Below are positions 1 to 29,736 of a stretch of 62,233 bases of DNA, piece after piece; position 1 is the first letter of the stretch, and every line of letters starts with the position of its first letter. The position numbers were made by a program, and so were the translations under genes. The notes under the pieces were generated by a model that was given only the letters and a program-made list of their open reading frames with translations, was not told the origin of the DNA and ran no database searches. Source of the stretch: an uncultured Lachnospiraceae bacterium (GTDB taxonomy: Bacteria > Bacillota > Clostridia > Lachnospirales > Lachnospiraceae); assembly GCA_900319245.1 (NCBI GenBank), contig ONNQ01000024.1, positions 1-62,233 of the forward strand, in the 5' to 3' direction.

Positions 1-237
1 CTTACTCATGTCGAAATAGTGAAACGCCAACGCTCACAAACAGGGAAGGAAAGGTACATGCACAGGCAATTCATCCCCTCCCTGTTCACTCGCAGGGACT
101 TTACTTCCGACCGACCAACTGTTAAGCTTGTGAACTGAGGAAGGGGTCTTCTTGCTATTACATGATAAACCCATATTCGCGGCATTGCCGCTGCATCTGC
201 TGTGCAAAGAATACGATCACAGAGGGGGAAATAAACT
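1..237. other. Intergenic start of window, no gene recognised
   Basis: I see no convincing coding sequence here. A reading frame on the reverse strand over 6-266 has no ribosome binding site and no family resemblance. The only clear signal is the purine-rich stretch AGAGGGGGAAA just before the start codon at 238. The promoter of the next gene presumably lies here but I cannot place it with confidence. Confidence 0.5.
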
Positions 238-771
238 ATGAACGACAAAGAAATCGGACTTGGCAATACCGGCTCGGACTACGGCGCCAGTGATCCCCGT
301 CCCAAGAGAAGCGTTGCGTTTTCCCAGGTAGAAAACGTTTATGTCATTCGATATGAGAACATCAATCCGACCGGAAGACTGTTCGGCGGACAGCTGGTCT
401 CCTGGATCGATGAAGTGGCGGGTGCCTGCGCCATGCGTCACTCTGGCCTTGCGGTGACCACTGCCTCCATCGACAATCTCACCTTCAAGCGGGGCGCCTA
501 TCTGGCGGACTGCCTCGTGCTTTTGGCCCGCATGACGTATGTGGGACGCACCTCCTGCGAGGTGCGCGTGGATTCCTATATTGAGGACAAGGAGGGCTTC
601 CGCCACACAATCAACCGTGCCTTCCTCTCCTACGTCGCGATTGACGAAAAAGGCAAGCCGATTCCGATTCCGTACGGTTTGGAAGTGAACACCGTCGCCG
701 AGAAGGCGCGCTGGGACGGCGCCCTTCTTCGCCGCAATAACCGCAAGTCCCGCAAGGACATTGGATTCTGA
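238..771 (+). CDS. Acyl-CoA thioesterase, hotdog fold (YciA/BACH type)
   Basis: A 177-residue single-domain hotdog protein predicted to hydrolyse acyl-CoA thioesters in the cytoplasm. The diagnostic stretch is NPTGRLFGGQLVSWIDEVAG at about residues 42-61, in which the N-x-x-G-x-x-F-G-G-x-x-x-x-W-x-D core matches the active-site helix of YciA/BACH-type hydrolases (Asp of the WIDE segment is the usual catalytic acid). The segment TTASIDNLTFKRGA is the usual second strand. An acidic/glycine N-terminal extension of about 25 residues precedes the fold. The start has AGAGGGGGAAATAAACT upstream. It stands alone and converges on the HAD gene at 812. Physiological substrate cannot be told from sequence. 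Confidence 0.85.
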   Translation: MNDKEIGLGNTGSDYGASDPRPKRSVAFSQVENVYVIRYENINPTGRLFGGQLVSWIDEVAGACAMRHSGLAVTTASIDNLTFKRGAYLADCLVLLARMTYVGRTSCEVRVDSYIEDKEGFRHTINRAFLSYVAIDEKGKPIPIPYGLEVNTVAEKARWDGALLRRNNRKSRKDIGF

Positions 772-811
772 CAGAAAGTCGCCGCGCCCCCGGTCTGCCG
801 CCCGTCCCGGG

Positions 812-1459
812 CTATGCCCGAAATCTGTCAAAATCCTCCAGTGAGTGCAGATAGATGCTGCACTCCGCCCGCATGGCTGCATTGTCCGCATCGCTGGCCG
901 CGTCATAGACGCCGACCGTCACGAAACCGGCGCTGTTCGCCGCCCGGACAGCGTGGATCACGTCCTCGAATACATAGACGTCTCCGGGGTCCTTTCCCAG
1001 CGCCTTAGCCGCCGCCAGGAAGATCCGCGGATCGCTCTTACTCGCGCCCGCTTCCTCACAGGTGATCATGCCGGCAAAATACCGGTATAATCCCAGCCGC
1101 TCCAGCGCCGCCTGCACATGCGCCCGGTTACTGGACGTCGCCAGATACATGGGAATCCCGGCCTTTTCCATCTGCGCAAGGAAAGTCCCTGCGCCGGGTT
1201 TGGCCTTGACTTCCTGCACATAGAAATCCCGGATCACACCCAGGACCCCGTCCTTGATCACCTGCTCGGAAAGGTCTGGCGTATAGGTTCTCTTCAAGTA
1301 GGCGGCGCCTTCGTCCAGACTCATGCGGAACAGGATCTGTCCCAGTCCGGCCTCGGCCTGTACGCCGATACTCCGCAGCCACCTTTCCGCGGCGTCGTCC
1401 CATATGGGCATGGAATCGATCAGCGTTCCGTCGATGTCAAAAATTGCGCCTTTGTTCAT
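812..1459 (-). CDS. HAD-superfamily phosphatase under TPP riboswitch control
   Basis: A 215-residue HAD subfamily-IA hydrolase. All four HAD motifs are visible: DIDGT (nucleophile and acid/base) near residue 7, TSS near the middle (motif II), the SKSDPRIF lysine (motif III) and FED (motif IV). A four-helix cap lies between motifs I and II. The start at 1459 was chosen because AAGAGGGACAT precedes it and because the in-frame upstream extension would run back into the leader terminator at 1561-1597. The gene is preceded by its own promoter, a TPP riboswitch and a terminator, so it is expected to be expressed when thiamine pyrophosphate is scarce. I infer a thiamine-pathway role such as dephosphorylation of thiamine monophosphate or a precursor phosphate, but the protein family alone only supports a generic phosphatase. 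Confidence 0.85.
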   Translation of the reverse strand: MNKGAIFDIDGTLIDSMPIWDDAAERWLRSIGVQAEAGLGQILFRMSLDEGAAYLKRTYTPDLSEQVIKDGVLGVIRDFYVQEVKAKPGAGTFLAQMEKAGIPMYLATSSNRAHVQAALERLGLYRYFAGMITCEEAGASKSDPRIFLAAAKALGKDPGDVYVFEDVIHAVRAANSAGFVTVGVYDAASDADNAAMRAECSIYLHSLEDFDRFRA

Positions 1460-1560
1460 ATGTCCCTCTTTGTCTCTGCCAATGCCATAGCCGCTCAAAC
1501 CGACAGGTCTCACATCGACAGCATTTCGTTCTCCTTTCTGCTTTCGCCTCCGCAGCACAT

Positions 1561-1597
1561 AAGAAAAAGCGGACATACAGCCTTAGTATGTCCGCTT
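1561..1597 (-). terminator. Rho-independent leader terminator of the TPP riboswitch
   Basis: On the reverse strand an 11-bp perfect stem (AGCGGACATAC with GTATGTCCGCT, 7-base loop) is followed by TTTTTCTT. It lies between the riboswitch aptamer and the HAD start codon, the arrangement of transcription-termination riboswitches. Confidence 0.9.
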
Positions 1598-1611
1598 ACA
1601 GTTCGCTCTGT

Positions 1612-1703
1612 GTGCATCCCTACGTTGGCATTATCCAAATCAGGTTTCCGGGTCGGCACAGTATAAGCGCCCTCTCAGCCTGCTCCTGCAAGCTCCCCTT
1701 TTG
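1612..1703 (-). promoter_or_regulatory. TPP riboswitch (THI element)
   Basis: Read on the reverse strand, the conserved THI-box pieces occur in order: GGGGAGC (P1/P2 side), GCTGAGAGG, CGACCCGG, AACCTGATTTGGATAATGCC and AACGTAGGGATG. CTGAGA, ACCTGAT-TGGATAATGCC and the closing GTAGGGA are the hallmark elements that bind the pyrimidine and pyrophosphate of TPP. The aptamer ends about 15 bases before the terminator hairpin and about 150 bases before the HAD start. Confidence 0.95.
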
Positions 1704-1707
1704 CTTT

Positions 1708-1736
1708 ATTATGTTACTTCATGAAAGTGTTGTCAA
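1708..1736 (-). promoter_or_regulatory. Promoter of the TPP-regulated HAD transcript
   Basis: Reverse strand TTGACA (1731-1736), 17-base spacer, CATAAT (1708-1713). It overlaps the last codons of the upstream MATE gene and begins transcription just before the GGGG of the riboswitch. Confidence 0.8.
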
Positions 1737-3109
1737 CCTCTGTCTGCGCCTATATTTTCATGGCGTGCTTTTCCCGTGATCACGTGGTACAGAAGGCCCA
1801 CTGAAACGGCCATCATGATCATCTCCGTAATGGGCTGTGCCTTGATCATGCCGCCAAATCCGAACAGCCTGTTGAGGATCACAAGAAGCGGCACATACAG
1901 AAGGAGCTGCCGCACAAGCGTGATGCCGAAGGCGTACTGGGGTTTTCCCATGGCCTGGAAGGACATCCGGCTCATGGAGATGGCGCCGACAAAGGGCAGG
2001 ATGCACATGATATTGCGCAGCACCCGGCTTCCCGTCGCGATGACCTCCGGCGACTGCGTGAAGATGCCGATCAGCTGCGGCGCGAAGATTCCGTAGATGG
2101 CCATGACGCACAGCTCTGTGCCGCTGACGACCATGACGCCGGCCTTAAGGACGTCCAGCATACGGCGGTAATTTCTGGCGCCGTAGTTGTATCCCATGAT
2201 GGGCTGCGTCCCGGCGGCAAAACCCTGATAGATGTAGTTGCCCAAAGAGAGAATCTTCTGCGCAATGCCCATGGCCGCGACCGTCAGTTCGCCGTACTGT
2301 ACAGCCAGGTTGTTGTTGACAATGTAGGCCGCGGACGTCAGAAGGGTCTCCAGCGTCGCCGGCACACCGACCCAGAAAATCTCGCGCAGGATCTCCGCTG
2401 TTGGCCGGATATAGGTGAAGGACGGCCTGAGCAGTGTTTTGCCAGACAGGTAATAATACAGGGAAACCAGCATGCCCGCCCCATTGCCCAGGATCGTTGC
2501 GATCGCGGCGCCGCGGATCTCCATGCCGAGCGTAAAGATGAAGATCGGGTCCAGGATGATATTGACCACCGTTCCCGCGATCATGCCCGCGACAGACTGT
2601 TTCACCGATCCCTCGCTTCGAAGGAGCTGCCCAAAGGTGTAATTGCCCATGGTCAAAAGACTGCCGGCTAGGATCACCTGCACATATTGCCGGGTGTAGT
2701 CGAAGGTGTTTTCCTGCGCGCCGAGGCCCTTCACGATGGCGTTCAGAAGAATCAAGCCGATCCCGGCGACGAGCACGCTGTTGACAACCGTCAGGACAAA
2801 GCCCGCGGTCAGGGTGTGATTGGCCTTTTCGTTGTCGCCCGCGCCGAGGCTTCTGGCGATTAGGGACGACGCGCCTGTGCCGATCATGTTGGAGATCGCA
2901 ATGGAGATCATCATGACCGGATAGGCCAGGTTGACGGCCGCCAGCTGGTAGTCGTCGTGCATCAGGCCTATGAAATAGGTGTCCACCAGGTTGTAGAGAA
3001 CCATGATGAACATGCCCGCGATCAGGGGGACGCCCAGTTTGACCACCGCCTTTGCCGGTTTCTCGCTTTTCAGTATATAAATTCTCTTGTCTTCACTCTG
3101 CTGTCTCAT
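1733..3109 (-). CDS. MATE-family multidrug/sodium antiporter
   Basis: About 458 residues with twelve hydrophobic segments in two related halves, the pattern of MATE (NorM/DinF-like) exporters. The segments GTGASSLIARSLGAGDNEKA in the N half and GFAAGTQPIMGYNYGARNYR in the C half are the paired MatE-domain signatures after TM2 and TM8. The start at 3109 is preferred over an upstream TTG (3142) because GGAAGGA precedes it. It is transcribed from the intergenic region shared with the phenylacetate-CoA ligase transcript. The promoter of the thiamine-linked HAD gene overlaps its 3' end; whether the pump is thiamine related is not indicated. Confidence 0.9.
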   Translation of the reverse strand: MRQQSEDKRIYILKSEKPAKAVVKLGVPLIAGMFIMVLYNLVDTYFIGLMHDDYQLAAVNLAYPVMMISIAISNMIGTGASSLIARSLGAGDNEKANHTLTAGFVLTVVNSVLVAGIGLILLNAIVKGLGAQENTFDYTRQYVQVILAGSLLTMGNYTFGQLLRSEGSVKQSVAGMIAGTVVNIILDPIFIFTLGMEIRGAAIATILGNGAGMLVSLYYYLSGKTLLRPSFTYIRPTAEILREIFWVGVPATLETLLTSAAYIVNNNLAVQYGELTVAAMGIAQKILSLGNYIYQGFAAGTQPIMGYNYGARNYRRMLDVLKAGVMVVSGTELCVMAIYGIFAPQLIGIFTQSPEVIATGSRVLRNIMCILPFVGAISMSRMSFQAMGKPQYAFGITLVRQLLLYVPLLVILNRLFGFGGMIKAQPITEMIMMAVSVGLLYHVITGKARHENIGADRG

Positions 3110-3332
3110 TTTTCTTCGGTCCTTCCAAGATGTCTGTATCAATTCTCTTTACACATACACTGTATACTTTGCATTGTATTATCATACCATTGTTCTCCCT
3201 TGCCTGACACATGGCATGTAAAATGTGGTCAATTCTTTTCATCTTTGCATGCTCACACTTTGAACTTTTTCCTTTTACACTGCAATTTGCTAAATTAACG
3301 CTTTTTTGAACTGTTTTGTGCCAAAAAACATG

Positions 3333-3361
3333 TTGACATCGTTTTTTTGCGATGGTATGAT
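3333..3361 (+). promoter_or_regulatory. Promoter of the leader-paaK-ACT transcript
   Basis: TTGACA at 3333-3338, exactly 17 bases, TATGAT at 3356-3361: a near-consensus vegetative promoter. Transcription would start near 3368, about 95 bases before the leader-peptide start codon. Confidence 0.85.
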
Positions 3362-3462
3362 TCATTCCAAGTTGCAGCAACTGAATATTTATTTGCACTT
3401 AGACGTTTTTATTCACTGTATTTGATTATTTATTCAAAATATCACACGTAAGGAGATTCAAG

Positions 3463-3555
3463 ATGAATCGCACACTCTGCACCGTCAACAACTTTTTCTT
3501 TAGCTTTTACTTTAGCTTTACTGGCGCACGCCGTAAGGTTGATTTGTCATGCTAA
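3463..3555 (+). CDS. Phenylalanine-rich attenuator leader peptide
   Basis: A 30-codon reading frame with a strong site AAGGAG placed 8 bases before its ATG. Residues 11-19 read FFFSFYFSF, so six Phe and one Tyr codon fall within nine codons. This is the composition of PheA/PheST leader peptides in enterobacteria. The frame ends at TAA 3553-3555 and a strong terminator follows at 3595-3629, ahead of the phenylacetate-CoA ligase. Codons 22-26 carry the DNA CACGCCGTAAGGTT, which could pair with AACC and GCGTG in the terminator's left side to form an antiterminator when a ribosome stalls on the Phe codons; this alternative fold is my inference. Confidence 0.85.
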   Translation: MNRTLCTVNNFFFSFYFSFTGARRKVDLSC

Positions 3556-3594
3556 AGAAAATGTGAGGACAGAGCGAAACAAAACCGTTCACAC

Positions 3595-3629
3595 AAGCGT
3601 GGCACTTCAACAGGTGCCACGCTTTTTTT
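3595..3629 (+). terminator. Attenuator terminator before the phenylacetate-CoA ligase
   Basis: Stem AAGCGTGGCAC / GTGCCACGCTT with a short loop and a run of seven T at 3623-3629. It lies 40 bases after the leader-peptide stop and 70 bases before the ligase start, so it would stop transcription unless an antiterminator forms. Confidence 0.9.
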
Positions 3630-3698
3630 GTGCGAAGCAATGAGCCATGCACAGCTAAAGTGAATGAAAAGATTTTCATAAAGGAAAGGAGTTATACA

Positions 3699-5006
3699 AT
3701 GAGCAACTATTACCAGAAAGAGATCGAGACCGCATCCCGCGAGGAGATCCTCAAGATTCAGAACGAAAAGATCGTCAAGCAGGTCAAGCACGTCTATGAG
3801 AACGTCCCCTACTACCGCAATCTCATGGACAAAAAGGGCGTCAAGCCGGAGGATATCCAGAGCGTCGATGATATCAAAAAGCTCCCTTTCCTCTCCAAGG
3901 ACGATCTGCGTGAAGCATATCCCTACGGCCTTCTCGGCACCGATCTCAAGAACTGCGTCCGCATCCAGTCCACGTCCGGTACGACCGGCAAGCGTGTTGT
4001 GGCTTTCTATACCCAGCACGACGTCGATATCTGGGAAGAGTGCTGTGCGAGAGCGATCATGGCAGCCGGCGGCACCAATGAAGACGTCTGCCAGATCAGC
4101 TACGGCTACGGCCTGTTCACCGGCGGTCCCGGTCTCAACGGCGGCTCCCACAAGGTCGGCTGCCTGACCCTTCCTATGTCTTCCGGTAACACAGACCGTC
4201 AGCTCCAGTTCATGATGGATCTTGGCGCAACCATTCTCTGCTGCACGCCTTCCTACGCGGCTTACCTCGGTGAGTCCCTTGCAGAGCGCGGCTATAAGCC
4301 TGAAGACAACAAGCTCAAGGCCGGTATCTTCGGCGCAGAGCCCTGGACCGAGGAGATGAGAAAGAGCATCGAAAAGAGTCTGGGCATCAAGGCCTATGAT
4401 ATCTATGGTCTGACAGAGACCTCCGGCCCCGGCGTCTCCTTCGAGTGTGAGGAGCAGACCGGCATGCACATCAATGAGGACCACTTCTACGCTGAGATCA
4501 TCGATCCCAAGACCGGCGAAGTGCTCCCGGAAGGTACCAAGGGCGAGCTCGTCTTCACTTCCCTCGACAAGGAAGGCTTCCCGCTCCTTCGCTACCGCAC
4601 CAAGGACATCTGTATTTTGTCCCGCAAGAAATGCTCCTGCGGCCGTACCCATGTCAAGATGACCAAGCCTCTGGGCAGAAGCGACGACATGATGATCATC
4701 CGCGGCGTCAACGTATTCCCGAGCCAGATCGAGGCCGTACTGCTCAAAGAGGGCTACACCCCCAACTACCAGATCGTCGTGGATCGCGCCAACAACACCG
4801 ATACCTTCGATATCTATGTCGAATTCGCACCGGAGCAGTTCTCCGATAAGATCGCGGACGTACAGGCCCGCGAGAAAGCGCTCAACGCAGCGATGCGCTC
4901 CATGCTCGGCATCGGACCCAAGATCCACCTTGTGGCGCCCAAGACCATCACAAGATCAGAAGGCAAGGCTGTGCGCGTCATCGATAAGCGCAAGCTCCAT
5001 GACTGA
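3699..5006 (+). CDS. paaK: Phenylacetate-CoA ligase (aryl-acid CoA ligase)
   Basis: A 435-residue ANL-superfamily adenylate-forming enzyme of the PaaK type that converts phenylacetate (and probably related aryl acids) to its CoA thioester with ATP. Visible motifs are the phosphate-binding loop QSTSGTTGKR near residue 90, the adenylate-binding YGLTETSG near residue 240 and the RYRTKD segment, followed by the mobile C-terminal domain with a CSCGR cluster common in this family. The start is set by AAAGGAG before ATG 3699. The following ACT-domain gene is 95 bases away and forms a pair often seen next to indolepyruvate/phenylpyruvate ferredoxin oxidoreductases. The Phe-codon attenuator upstream suggests expression when charged tRNA-Phe is low, pointing to aryl-acid salvage into Phe rather than Phe breakdown. 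Confidence 0.92.
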   Translation: MSNYYQKEIETASREEILKIQNEKIVKQVKHVYENVPYYRNLMDKKGVKPEDIQSVDDIKKLPFLSKDDLREAYPYGLLGTDLKNCVRIQSTSGTTGKRVVAFYTQHDVDIWEECCARAIMAAGGTNEDVCQISYGYGLFTGGPGLNGGSHKVGCLTLPMSSGNTDRQLQFMMDLGATILCCTPSYAAYLGESLAERGYKPEDNKLKAGIFGAEPWTEEMRKSIEKSLGIKAYDIYGLTETSGPGVSFECEEQTGMHINEDHFYAEIIDPKTGEVLPEGTKGELVFTSLDKEGFPLLRYRTKDICILSRKKCSCGRTHVKMTKPLGRSDDMMIIRGVNVFPSQIEAVLLKEGYTPNYQIVVDRANNTDTFDIYVEFAPEQFSDKIADVQAREKALNAAMRSMLGIGPKIHLVAPKTITRSEGKAVRVIDKRKLHD

Positions 5007-5101
5007 TGGGACCGGCGGCAGATACACTGCATGGCCGCAGCAGGATCTCGCGTAGATCCTGTATATGATCTATAAAGCGATTTATATAAGGAGGAATAAC
5101 C

Positions 5102-5533
5102 ATGGCAATCACACAGTTGTCCGCATTTCTTGAAAATACACCCGGCACCCTTTATCAGGCTGTCAGCACGATCTCTGACGCCGGCGTCAATCTCCGCGCG
5201 CTTTCCGTCGCGGACACCAGCGACTTCGGCATTCTTCGCGTCATTGTTTCCGACACGGAAAAGACCAAAGCGGCCCTCTCTGACGTCGCAGTCTGCACCG
5301 AGACCAAGGTCATCGCCGCCAAGATGAGCGACGAGGCGGGCGCCCTCAAGAAGATCCTCGCGATCATCCAGGAGACCGGCGTCAATATCGAATATGTCTA
5401 TGCCTTCACGTCGGCTGTCGCAGGAAACGCCTATGTCGTACTGCGCGTCAACGATGTAGAAAGCGCGGAGGAAGTCCTTGCCAAGGCCGGCATCGCGACA
5501 CTCTCCGATGAGGATCTGGAAGGTCTTCTGTAA
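5102..5533 (+). CDS. Tandem ACT-domain amino-acid-binding protein
   Basis: A 143-residue protein made of two ACT domains (about residues 3-68 and 70-137). Each has the Gly-bearing turn typical of ligand-binding ACT folds: NTPGTLYQAVSTISDAGVN in the first and DEAGALKKILAIIQETGVN in the second. AAGGAGG lies 7 bases before ATG 5102. Proteins of this type accompany PaaK-like ligases in anaerobes and are thought to sense aromatic amino acids. Here the shared attenuator supports Phe (or another aromatic amino acid) as the ligand; partner and ligand are not shown by the sequence. Confidence 0.88.
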   Translation: MAITQLSAFLENTPGTLYQAVSTISDAGVNLRALSVADTSDFGILRVIVSDTEKTKAALSDVAVCTETKVIAAKMSDEAGALKKILAIIQETGVNIEYVYAFTSAVAGNAYVVLRVNDVESAEEVLAKAGIATLSDEDLEGLL

Positions 5534-28335: not shown

Positions 28336-29517
28336 TCAGTACTCGAGATTCTTGCCTGTCTCCTTAGAAAAGACGTGTGCGACATTGCCAGCAAAAGTAA
28401 AGTGCACAAGATCTCCGTAATTGTAGTTGTCTTCCATGTCAAGAATCGGAACGATAATGATGACATCGCGGCCATCTGCATTGACATGCAGATGCACAGA
28501 GGATCCCATCATCTCGCTGACATCTACCTTGGCAGGAACGCCTTTGTCTGAGATATTTGTATGTTCAGGACGGACACCAAGTGTAATCGGCTGGCTCTGG
28601 ACATTGTTCGCCAGAAGACGGGCTGTCTTTTTCTCATCCAACTGAACCTTTACGCCGCTGAGTTCAACAAAGAAATTGTTGCCTTCACGCTTAAGCTCTG
28701 CATCGAAGAAATTCATGACGGGCATGCCGATGAATCCTGCGACAAAGAGGTTGGCCGGATGATTGAAGACTTCCTGCGGTGTTCCGATCTGCTGGATGTA
28801 TCCATCGCGCATGATAACGATACGATCACCCAGAGTCATTGCTTCCGTCTGGTCATGCGTAACATACATGAAGGTTGTGTCAATGCGCTTGCGCAGCTTA
28901 ATGATCTCAGCACGCATTTCGTTTCTGAGCTTCGCATCCAGGTTGGACAGAGGCTCATCCATCAGCATAACCTTCGGCGCACGGACGATTGCGCGGCCGA
29001 TCGCAACACGCTGACGCTGACCACCTGACAGAGCCTTCGGTTTACGCTCAAGATACTGTGTGATATCAAGGATTCTGGCTGCTTCGCGGACCTTTTTGTC
29101 AATCTCCTCCTTAGGCGTATGGCGGAGCTTTAAGGAGAAAGCCATGTTTTCATATACTGTCATGTGCGGATACAGGGCGTAGTTCTGGAAGACCATGGCG
29201 ATATCGCGATCCTTCGGAGCTACGTCATTCATAACCTTGCCATCGATGACCAGCTCGCCGCCGGAGATCTCCTCAAGTCCGGCAACCATACGCAGGGTGG
29301 TGGATTTTCCACATCCGGAAGGGCCTACCAGCACGATGAACTCTTTGTCTTTGATATCAAGGCTGAACTGCTGCACTGCCACGACGCCTTCATCTGTGAT
29401 CTGCAGATTGATCTTCTTCTCCGGCTCGTCGGCGTTCTTTTTCTTATTTTTCTTCTTATCTTCGCCGCTGATATAAGGATATACTTTCTTAATGTTTTTG
29501 AGCTGAACACTCGCCAT
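28336..29517 (-). CDS. Sugar ABC transporter ATPase (MsmK/UgpC type)
   Basis: A 393-residue MalK-like ATPase. Walker A GPSGCGKST at 65-73, Q-loop VFQNYALYPHMT, signature LSGGQRQRVAIGRA, Walker B VMLMDEPLSNLD and the H-loop THDQTEAM are all present, followed by an OB-fold regulatory domain (about 250-390). Unusual is a 25-residue Lys/Asp-rich insertion (GEDKKKNKKKNADEPEKK, residues 18-35) between the first two strands. It powers the two permeases of this operon. Many Lpl/Ytc-type systems borrow a shared ATPase from elsewhere, so its presence here makes the importer complete. Confidence 0.95.
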   Translation of the reverse strand: MASVQLKNIKKVYPYISGEDKKKNKKKNADEPEKKINLQITDEGVVAVQQFSLDIKDKEFIVLVGPSGCGKSTTLRMVAGLEEISGGELVIDGKVMNDVAPKDRDIAMVFQNYALYPHMTVYENMAFSLKLRHTPKEEIDKKVREAARILDITQYLERKPKALSGGQRQRVAIGRAIVRAPKVMLMDEPLSNLDAKLRNEMRAEIIKLRKRIDTTFMYVTHDQTEAMTLGDRIVIMRDGYIQQIGTPQEVFNHPANLFVAGFIGMPVMNFFDAELKREGNNFFVELSGVKVQLDEKKTARLLANNVQSQPITLGVRPEHTNISDKGVPAKVDVSEMMGSSVHLHVNADGRDVIIIVPILDMEDNYNYGDLVHFTFAGNVAHVFSKETGKNLEY

Positions 29518-29736
29518 GTTTATTCGCTCCGGACGTTCTGCCTCCGCAAGGAACGTCCTCGCGCGGGCTTATGCCTCGCACCTTACGGCAGGTCTCCACA
29601 CTGCCGCAGCCCGAGCAGGGCTTTTCCTCCTTTCTTTCATGTCCGGCAGTCCAAAAAGTGGAGTGGTCTGCCGTCATGGAATTAAGCTGTTCATAATATT
29701 ACTTCATGGTTAATTCTTATGCTCTATAGGCTGTGT

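What the first reader, a model, noticed from the sequence alone, without database searches (positions are those of the whole stretch)
3333..5533. Phe-codon leader-peptide attenuator driving a phenylacetate-CoA ligase/ACT pair
Seen: near-consensus promoter, 30-codon ORF with AAGGAG and FFFSFYFSF, strong terminator, then paaK and tandem-ACT genes. Known: leader peptides with runs of the regulatory codon (pheA, pheST, his, trp) allow attenuation; Clostridia usually use T-boxes for tRNA sensing instead; methanogens and some rumen bacteria take up aryl acids and carboxylate aryl-acetyl-CoA with IOR-type oxidoreductases to make aromatic amino acids. Inference: the ligase is induced when charged tRNA-Phe is scarce, so it serves salvage of phenylacetate into Phe, not Phe breakdown, and the ACT protein gives feedback. 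The leader reveals the metabolic direction.
Basis: partly seen in the sequence, partly recalled or inferred. Interest (0 to 1): 0.85.

Follow-up and report, generated by a model that had tools for sequence, protein, structure and literature searches.

The report
Phenylalanine-sensing switch before phenylacetate ligase gene
A gut or rumen bacterium appears to switch on a gene for activating phenylacetate only when it runs short of phenylalanine, using a tiny phenylalanine-rich peptide as the sensor, which suggests that the enzyme helps to build the amino acid rather than break it down.

Summary
Window 3333-5533 holds a sigma-70 promoter, a 30-codon leader ORF (MNRTLCTVNNFFFSFYFSFTGARRKVDLSC) with a ribosome site, three mutually exclusive hairpins (1:2, 2:3 antiterminator, 3:4 terminator), then paaK and a tandem-ACT gene. 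The leader stands directly before paaK in 23 loci compared here; its Phe codons are kept, and the antiterminator pairs are kept through compensatory changes. Covariance models find sister leaders before other aromatic genes in the same bacterial family, with codons that tend to match the product: Phe or Phe/Tyr before pheA, Tyr/Phe before aroF-tyrA, Trp (with Phe) before trpB2. None of those scanned matches Rfam. The window's own genome has two T-box candidates, on pheST and trpB2, so both systems coexist. An IOR of the kind linked to paaK elsewhere lies on another contig.

Best reading: ribosome-mediated attenuation induces paaK when Phe-tRNA is scarce, for phenylacetate salvage into Phe. The mechanism is strongly supported by sequence; the direction of flux is inferred. 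Leader-peptide attenuation is a known kind, reported in Firmicutes for other amino acids. The aromatic-codon family in this clade and the arylacetate-ligase target were not found in the literature searched.

The parts
3333..3361 (+). sigma-70 promoter, TTGACA-17-TATGAT with extended -10 (TG)
   Evidence: a promoter-like match of 9 of 12 or better lies within 220 bases before 18 of the 20 aligned leaders, own included
3450..3455 (+). ribosome binding site AAGGAG of the leader ORF
3463..3555 (+). leader peptide ORF, 30 codons plus TAA
   Evidence: conserved in orthologues
3493..3519 (+). control codons: FFFSFYFSF, 6 Phe and 1 Tyr in 9 codons
3494..3561 (+). 1:2 hairpin; the Phe codons form its 5' arm; -26.4 kcal/mol
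   Evidence: pairs counted
3538..3611 (+). 2:3 antiterminator; 14 pairs, 3538-3553 with 3596-3611
   Evidence: covariation
3595..3629 (+). 3:4 intrinsic terminator, 13-pair stem 3595-3624 and T tract
   Evidence: covariation
3685..3691 (+). ribosome binding site of paaK, AAAGGAG
   Evidence: read
3699..5006 (+). paaK-type AMP-forming arylacetate--CoA ligase, 435 aa
5102..5533 (+). tandem ACT-domain protein, 143 aa
   Evidence: a homologue on the same strand as paaK in 101 of 109 loci L013-L121
5573..5616 (+). hairpin and T run that probably end the operon
   Evidence: read by eye; not scanned

Best explanation
This is a classical ribosome-mediated transcription attenuator. When charged tRNA-Phe is ample, the ribosome runs to the stop codon at 3553 and covers region 2; the terminator 3595-3624 forms and transcription stops before paaK. 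When charged tRNA-Phe is scarce, the ribosome stalls on the Phe codons at 3493-3519; region 1 is covered, region 2 (3538-3553) pairs with region 3 (3596-3611), the terminator is blocked and paaK and the ACT gene are made. Without translation, the 1:2 hairpin leaves region 3 free and the terminator forms. The ligase makes phenylacetyl-CoA, which an indolepyruvate-type oxidoreductase (IOR) encoded elsewhere in the genome would carboxylate to phenylpyruvate, to be aminated to Phe: salvage, not breakdown. Shown by sequence: ORF, codons, three exclusive helices, covariation, conservation, related leaders before Phe, Tyr and Trp genes. Inferred: response to Phe-tRNA, substrate, direction of flux.
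For: Anatomy. With modelled ribosome positions, 2:3 forms in the best fold of a transcript ending at 3612 when the ribosome is on a Phe codon, and cannot form when it is at the stop. Antiterminator on 20 sequences: 98.6% of 280 cells paired, 9 cells changed on both sides, covariation score reached by 0 of 500 shuffles. On 37 more diverse sequences (13 of them before other genes), aligned by a model that does not contain this helix: 89.6% of 489 cells paired, 24 double-change cells, 0 of 500. Terminator: 24 double-change cells, 0 of 500. Conservation: 23 of 62 genus genomes, all 23 among the 24 that have this paaK type. Codons and genes: 22 leaders directly before paaK hold 140 Phe, 12 Tyr, 1 Trp; 6 before aroF-tyrA hold 27 Phe, 24 Tyr, 1 Trp, p = 6e-5 without correction for kinship; Trp codons occur in 3 of 3 leaders before trpB2. 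Phe or Phe/Tyr leaders precede pheA. IOR in the genome; iorA and iorB within 3 kb upstream of paaK in 32 of 80 relatives.
Against: No expression, ribosome or flux data. In the complete transcript the terminator wins in each modelled case, though 2:3 alone (-21.9) and 3:4 alone (-20.8 kcal/mol) are about equal; antitermination rests on timing, as in known attenuators. Two covariation measures do not exceed shuffles (pairs with a double change 104 of 500, further pair types 370 of 500, 35 and 488 of 500). The outer part of the 1:2 hairpin (4 pairs) is only 61% paired in relatives. PaaK scores below the NCBIfam equivalog cut-off (509 of 646 bits), so phenylacetate as substrate is not certified. 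54 of 62 genus genomes have prephenate dehydratase, so salvage is not the sole route there. Leaders before CM-PDT hold about as many Tyr as Phe codons, so the codon match is not strict. PMC13285125 cites work in which IOR of B. thetaiotaomicron takes part in turning Phe into phenylacetate.
Confidence: 0.82

Rival explanations
1. The attenuator is real and senses Phe-tRNA, but the ligase does not serve Phe synthesis: it runs in reverse to make ATP from phenylacetyl-CoA in Phe fermentation, or traps phenylacetate for another use.
For: 2-Oxoacid oxidoreductases of acetogens oxidise Phe to phenylacetate (passages of PMC13290082). IOR of B. thetaiotaomicron is cited as acting from Phe to phenylacetate (PMC13285125, section 14). 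The genome has further paaK paralogues and four POR-family matches.
Against: A breakdown gene switched on by lack of its own substrate makes no sense. Sister leaders stand before biosynthetic genes. The authors of PMC13285125 argue that AMP-forming ligases favour acyl-CoA synthesis and that IOR in Bacteroides may be biosynthetic (section 14).
Confidence: 0.12
2. The leader senses something else that stalls ribosomes, such as a translation inhibitor, and the Phe run is incidental.
For: Leader peptides upstream of resistance genes work so in Gram-positives (macrolide efflux, abstract start in the listing; a hflX uORF in PMC8632094, passages).
Against: The leader precedes metabolic, not resistance, genes; aromatic codons vary with the gene that follows; the number of Phe is held at 5-7 in 22 leaders while the residues between change.
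Confidence: 0.03
3. The 5' region is not an attenuator: the ORF is chance and the terminator has another role.
For: Short Phe-rich ORFs can arise by chance in T-rich DNA; one of 21 scanner hits looks like chance (L276 at 2764).
Against: Promoter lies just upstream and the neighbouring gene is divergent; conservation in 23 of 62 genomes; covariation of two exclusive helices; z -6.5. A mechanical scan of 93 loci on both strands gave 21 hits, 20 of them in sense before aromatic or symporter genes (67 of the loci were fetched for prephenate dehydratase, the others mostly because the model matched). A plus-strand scan of 80 loci gave 4 hits, all of them model matches too.
Confidence: 0.02

Closest known systems
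E. coli pheA / pheST leader-peptide attenuators (Phe_leader in Rfam; recalled)
   Same: Phe-rich leader peptide, 1:2, 2:3 and 3:4 hairpins, stop codon placed to cover region 2 (recalled for E. coli)
   Different: No match to any Rfam family at gathering score; different target gene; another phylum
Firmicute leader-peptide attenuators: his operons in B. cereus group, some Eubacteriales and Erysipelotrichales (PMC9413887, passages); hisS*/hisZ in Bacillus (PMC2965389, passages); ilv-leu in S. aureus and Listeria (PMC6123439, passages)
   Same: Ribosome-mediated attenuation in Gram-positives
   Different: Other amino acids and operons; not aromatic, not a salvage ligase
uORFC-13-1 motif before aroF of Acholeplasma (PMC8632094, passages)
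   Same: Short ORF with Phe codon(s), terminator, aroF target, proposed attenuation
   Different: Distant genus; described with 'at least one' Phe residue; relation by sequence not tested here
T-box riboswitch (RF00230)
   Same: Senses tRNA charging and controls a terminator; same genome has two candidates, on pheST and trpB2
   Different: Reads tRNA directly, without a leader peptide; no Rfam match at the paaK leader
PaaK phenylacetate--CoA ligases of known structure (4r1l, 2y27, 2y4o)
   Same: Full-length homology, E 1e-118 or better
   Different: Substrate not tested; below the TIGR02155 cut-off
IOR and arylacetate-CoA ligase clusters of anaerobes (discussed in PMC13285125, sections 13 and 14)
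   Same: The ligase is a close relative of the paaK found behind iorAB in 32 of 80 relatives
   Different: Here paaK-ACT is detached from iorAB and has its own Phe leader

Membership tests
Ribosome-mediated leader-peptide attenuator | short ORF with own RBS behind a promoter and before the operon | tested here: met
   RBS and promoter in relatives. Translation itself not testable
Ribosome-mediated leader-peptide attenuator | run of codons for the regulating amino acid, conserved | tested here: met
Ribosome-mediated leader-peptide attenuator | mutually exclusive antiterminator and terminator | tested here: met
Ribosome-mediated leader-peptide attenuator | stop codon placed so that a terminating ribosome covers region 2 and a stalled one does not | tested here: met
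   stop 3553 lies at the end of region 2; the last Phe codon, 3517, is 21 bases before it begins (a footprint of about 15 bases each side is assumed)
Ribosome-mediated leader-peptide attenuator | expression responds to charging of the cognate tRNA | not testable with these tools
   needs an experiment
Rfam Phe_leader and all other Rfam families | covariance model match at gathering score | tested here: not met
   window; 16 related loci; only a tRNA found; which includes L050 and L056; no match at their leaders
T-box riboswitch | RF00230 match with specifier and T-box sequence | tested here: not met
   no match at the leader (gathering score); the genome-wide search, which reports matches under that score, found two places on other contigs and none here
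Phenylacetate--CoA ligase PaaK (TIGR02155) | score above the equivalog cut-off | tested here: not met
   509.3 of 646.3 bits, full length
AMP-forming ligase of the PaaK type | AMP-binding and AMP-binding_C_2 domains | tested here: met
   PF00501 and PF14535 above cut-off
Aryl acid salvage by ligase and IOR | IOR alpha and beta encoded in the genome | tested here: met
   C38: IorA 690 bits over the TIGR03336 cut-off of 651; IorB over NF005325 (255 of 230) though under TIGR03334 (176 of 206); 55% and 50% identical to those next to paaK in L047
Aryl acid salvage by ligase and IOR | phenylacetate carbon enters Phe | not testable with these tools
   needs labelling

The most novel reading that the evidence does not exclude
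Lachnospiraceae carry one recognisable family of leader-peptide attenuators for the whole aromatic network (DAHP synthase, pheA, tyrA, aroD, trpB2, arylacetate ligase, a sodium symporter). Its codons are swapped between Phe, Tyr and Trp according to the gene, and it replaces T-boxes at the same gene within one genus (trpB2: T-box candidate in the window's genome, Trp/Phe leader in G059). The codons then act as a readable label: the ligase behind a Phe leader makes Phe from phenylacetate, the trpB2-paaK operons behind Trp/Phe leaders serve Trp and Phe, and the symporter-paaK operons import aryl acids for Tyr or Phe. This gives regulatory evidence that IOR/ligase pathways in some gut anaerobes run towards synthesis.
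Probability: 0.6. Interest if true: 0.76.

Novelty: new variant of a known kind. Interest (0 to 1): 0.64.

Why it matters
Whether IOR and arylacetate-CoA ligases of gut and rumen anaerobes break down or build aromatic amino acids is argued in current papers (PMC13285125, section 14; PMC13290082, passages). A gene switched on by lack of Phe points to the direction without an enzyme assay, and makes the question testable in a reporter or by labelling. The related leaders also suggest that classical attenuation is a working alternative to T-boxes for aromatic genes in Lachnospiraceae; those scanned match no Rfam family. Phenylacetate and its products reach the host, so bacteria that consume it are of interest.

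Tried and rejected
Rfam as an explanation: no family at the leader, none at 16 related leaders. T-boxes near paaK in 20 relatives (L046-L065, two of which, L050 and L056, have leaders further upstream): none at gathering score; but the two T-box candidates of the own genome also lie under that score, so this search could miss such ones. More leaders in the window's own genome with R1 at lax settings: only the window copy; the five other matches have E of 0.07 or worse. Members outside the family: R2 over 392 genomes of the order gave 13 genomes at E up to 0.001, own included; a relaxed scan of 13 loci found no leader ORF, yet it also missed the real one of G254, so it is weak evidence; apart from the window and G254 I judge the rest chance. 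Only seven candidates per genome were scored, so counts there are lower bounds. Of 20 weaker places that I fetched, 7 proved to hold a leader (six, L189 by eye); the other weak matches were not examined. My scanner misses real leaders: L189, L261 and L264 were seen only by eye. A frame error was corrected. Missing prephenate dehydratase in the window's genome was not used as evidence, since the assembly is 87% complete. Papers: (ligase + leader peptide + attenuation + phenylalanine) found none; one search found two; of the longer results I saw only the top of the list (20 of 117, 15 of 1,439, 12 of 88) and noticed no aromatic leader peptide in Lachnospiraceae there. That is a claim about the held library only.
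Full report
WHAT IS THERE. The operon starts with a near-consensus extended promoter at 3333-3361. About 100 bases later AAGGAG and ATG begin a 30-codon ORF, 3463-3555, MNRTLCTVNNFFFSFYFSFTGARRKVDLSC, with six Phe codons and one Tyr in nine codons. A 13-pair terminator with a T tract follows at 3595-3629, then paaK 3699-5006 and a tandem ACT gene 5102-5533. The neighbour upstream is divergent.

ALTERNATIVE FOLDS. Folding 3463-3629 gives -60.1 kcal/mol, z -6.5, none of 200 shuffles as stable. Folding from successive start points shows three elements: a 1:2 hairpin (3494-3561) whose 5' arm is the Phe codons, a 2:3 antiterminator (3538-3553 with 3596-3611) and the 3:4 terminator. With a ribosome modelled on a Phe codon and the transcript not beyond 3612, 2:3 forms in the best fold, wholly or in part; with the ribosome at the stop codon it cannot form and, once transcribed, the terminator does. 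Footprints are assumptions. In the transcript to 3629 the terminator wins in all four modelled cases, so the switch is one of timing; 2:3 alone (-21.9) and 3:4 alone (-20.8 kcal/mol) are about equal.

CONSERVATION. A search of 62 genomes of the genus, own included, found the ligase at 88% identity or more in 24: 20 full copies and four in pieces. The leader model R1 was built from 20 loci: window, 18 other genus loci and L045. It matches with 90 bits or more in 23 of 62 genomes. All 23 are among the 24; in G006 the gene is in pieces and no leader was found. In 20 genus genomes the leader is directly before paaK; in G059 a trpB-like gene lies between; in G005 and G054 the leader is at a contig end and no paaK is seen behind it. 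With L045, L154 and L155 this makes 23 loci with the leader directly before paaK. Three loci (L042-L044) have the contig lengths and identities of contigs already held and were dropped as copies. Ten genus loci with 68-76% identical paaK (L032-L041, two with less than 500 bases upstream) show no such leader.

COVARIATION. On the 20-sequence alignment A1 the antiterminator is paired in 98.6% of 280 cells, with 9 cells changed on both sides, and none of 500 shuffles reaches the covariation score; yet the number of pairs with a double change (2) is reached by 104 of 500 and the number of further pair types by 370. The terminator has 24 double-change cells and 0 of 500 for the score, 35 and 488 of 500 for those two measures. 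The 1:2 hairpin is paired in 84.4% of cells; its outermost four pairs only in 61%. These structures were derived from the window sequence, which favours them over the slid controls. A better test is alignment A3: 37 sequences (36 distinct), 13 of them before other genes, fitted to a model that holds 1:2 and 3:4 but not 2:3. There 2:3 is paired in 89.6% of 489 cells with 24 double-change cells (0 of 500), 7 pairs with double change (1 of 500) and score 0 of 500. The terminator arm anchors region 3 in that alignment, so the test is not wholly free.

RELATED LEADERS BEFORE OTHER GENES. R1 and then R2 over 397 genomes of the family led to leader ORFs in 16 genomes outside the genus. Genes after them were named by Pfam or NCBIfam for representatives and otherwise by eye. 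Examples: MTTSFAFFFAFTSNRCKGDL and MNSRANLKSASYFFFFAFTSSRCKGNL before prephenate dehydratase and a DAHP synthase; MNRKYNFTYYYFYFNFTDRK, MRQQFTIADLYYYYLYFTP and four others before aroF-tyrA; MKNIRIANLFWWWRFTEKQ before trpB2; MNRTLGTAFYWFWFSFTDSFGKVDLRCDEA (L056) and MRQSRNDNFWRFFSFTGTDSKVGLLC (G059) before trpB2-paaK; MRNELSIANVKKYYYFYFYPSCQMG and MNRVLSIAKYFYFYLSFSGRDNLQCLKQCF before a sodium symporter and paaK. Among 67 fetched prephenate dehydratase loci of the genus (of 70 rows) the scanner found 9 leaders, and two more were seen by eye (L261 and L264).

CODONS FOLLOW THE GENE. In 22 leaders directly before paaK (G058 left out) there are 140 Phe, 12 Tyr and 1 Trp codons; in 6 before aroF-tyrA 27 Phe, 24 Tyr and 1 Trp. 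The Tyr share differs with p = 6e-5 if loci are taken as independent, which they are not. All three leaders before trpB2 hold Trp codons (1, 2 and 3), with 4, 5 and 2 Phe. Against a strict rule: the six CM-PDT leaders tabulated hold 3-6 Phe and 1-4 Tyr, L261 is Tyr-rich too, and seven leaders before other genes hold a single Trp codon. For the finding this matters in one way: the class as a whole stands before genes that make the amino acids it reads, so a nearly pure Phe leader on paaK points to Phe synthesis.

METABOLISM. PaaK is a full-length relative of solved phenylacetate ligases but lies under the equivalog cut-off. In 32 of 80 relatives of this ligase type iorA and iorB lie within 3 kb upstream, one more has iorB alone. 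The window's genome has an IOR on contig C38 (IorA 690 bits against a cut-off of 651), 55% identical to the IorA next to paaK in L047, about 6 kb before a second paaK, and another iorAB-paaK on C61. Phe from phenylacetate in rumen fermentation is cited in PMC7356843 (passage, citing Allison 1965, not read). PMC13285125 (abstract and sections 13 and 14) argues that AMP-forming ligases favour CoA ester synthesis and that IOR in Bacteroides may be biosynthetic; the same text cites work in which that IOR takes part in turning Phe into phenylacetate. PMC13290082 (passages) shows flux from Phe to phenylacetate in an acetogen. The leader is regulatory evidence for synthesis in this clade; flux itself is not shown.

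T-BOXES. The genome has two T-box candidates, both under the Rfam cut-off (66.5 and 61.6 of 93 bits), before pheS-pheT and before a trpB-like gene. I read the specifiers as UUC and UGG by eye from the alignments. So tRNA-Phe seems to be sensed in two ways in one cell, and trpB2 has a T-box candidate here but a leader peptide in G059, a species of the same genus.

KNOWN OR NEW. Leader-peptide attenuation is textbook, and in Firmicutes it is reported for histidine and branched-chain genes (PMC9413887, PMC2965389, PMC6123439; passages), with a Phe-containing candidate before aroF of Acholeplasma (PMC8632094, passages). I noticed no report of an aromatic leader family in Lachnospiraceae or of a leader before an arylacetate ligase in the listings. 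Hence new variant of a known kind.

Noticed in passing
L281 and L282 (own genome, contigs C49 and C42): Two T-box candidates under the Rfam cut-off, before pheS-pheT and before a trpB-like gene; specifiers read by eye as UUC and UGG.
   Followed up: partly
L275 (G059:C109) 179-3687: Operon with a Trp/Phe leader before trpB2, paaK and ACT, in a species of the same genus whose ligase is 92% identical to the window's.
   Followed up: partly
L050 1163-2910 and L081 1060-2786: Tyr/Phe leaders before a sodium:solute symporter followed by paaK-ACT: a candidate aryl acid importer.
   Followed up: partly
L277 / L151 (G039:C55): Leader with Phe, Tyr and Trp codons before a sodium:solute symporter gene at a contig end; perhaps an aromatic amino acid carrier.
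   Followed up: no
L201 (G230:C75): Phe/Tyr leader MKNLYSANFFYFFSFAAFTGKARLRTAELPNPV before type I 3-dehydroquinate dehydratase.
   Followed up: no
window 1600-1709 (-): TPP riboswitch at 58.0 bits (cut-off 54.3), on the minus strand.
   Followed up: no
window 29512-29681 (-): malK-I RNA motif, 134 bits.
   Followed up: no
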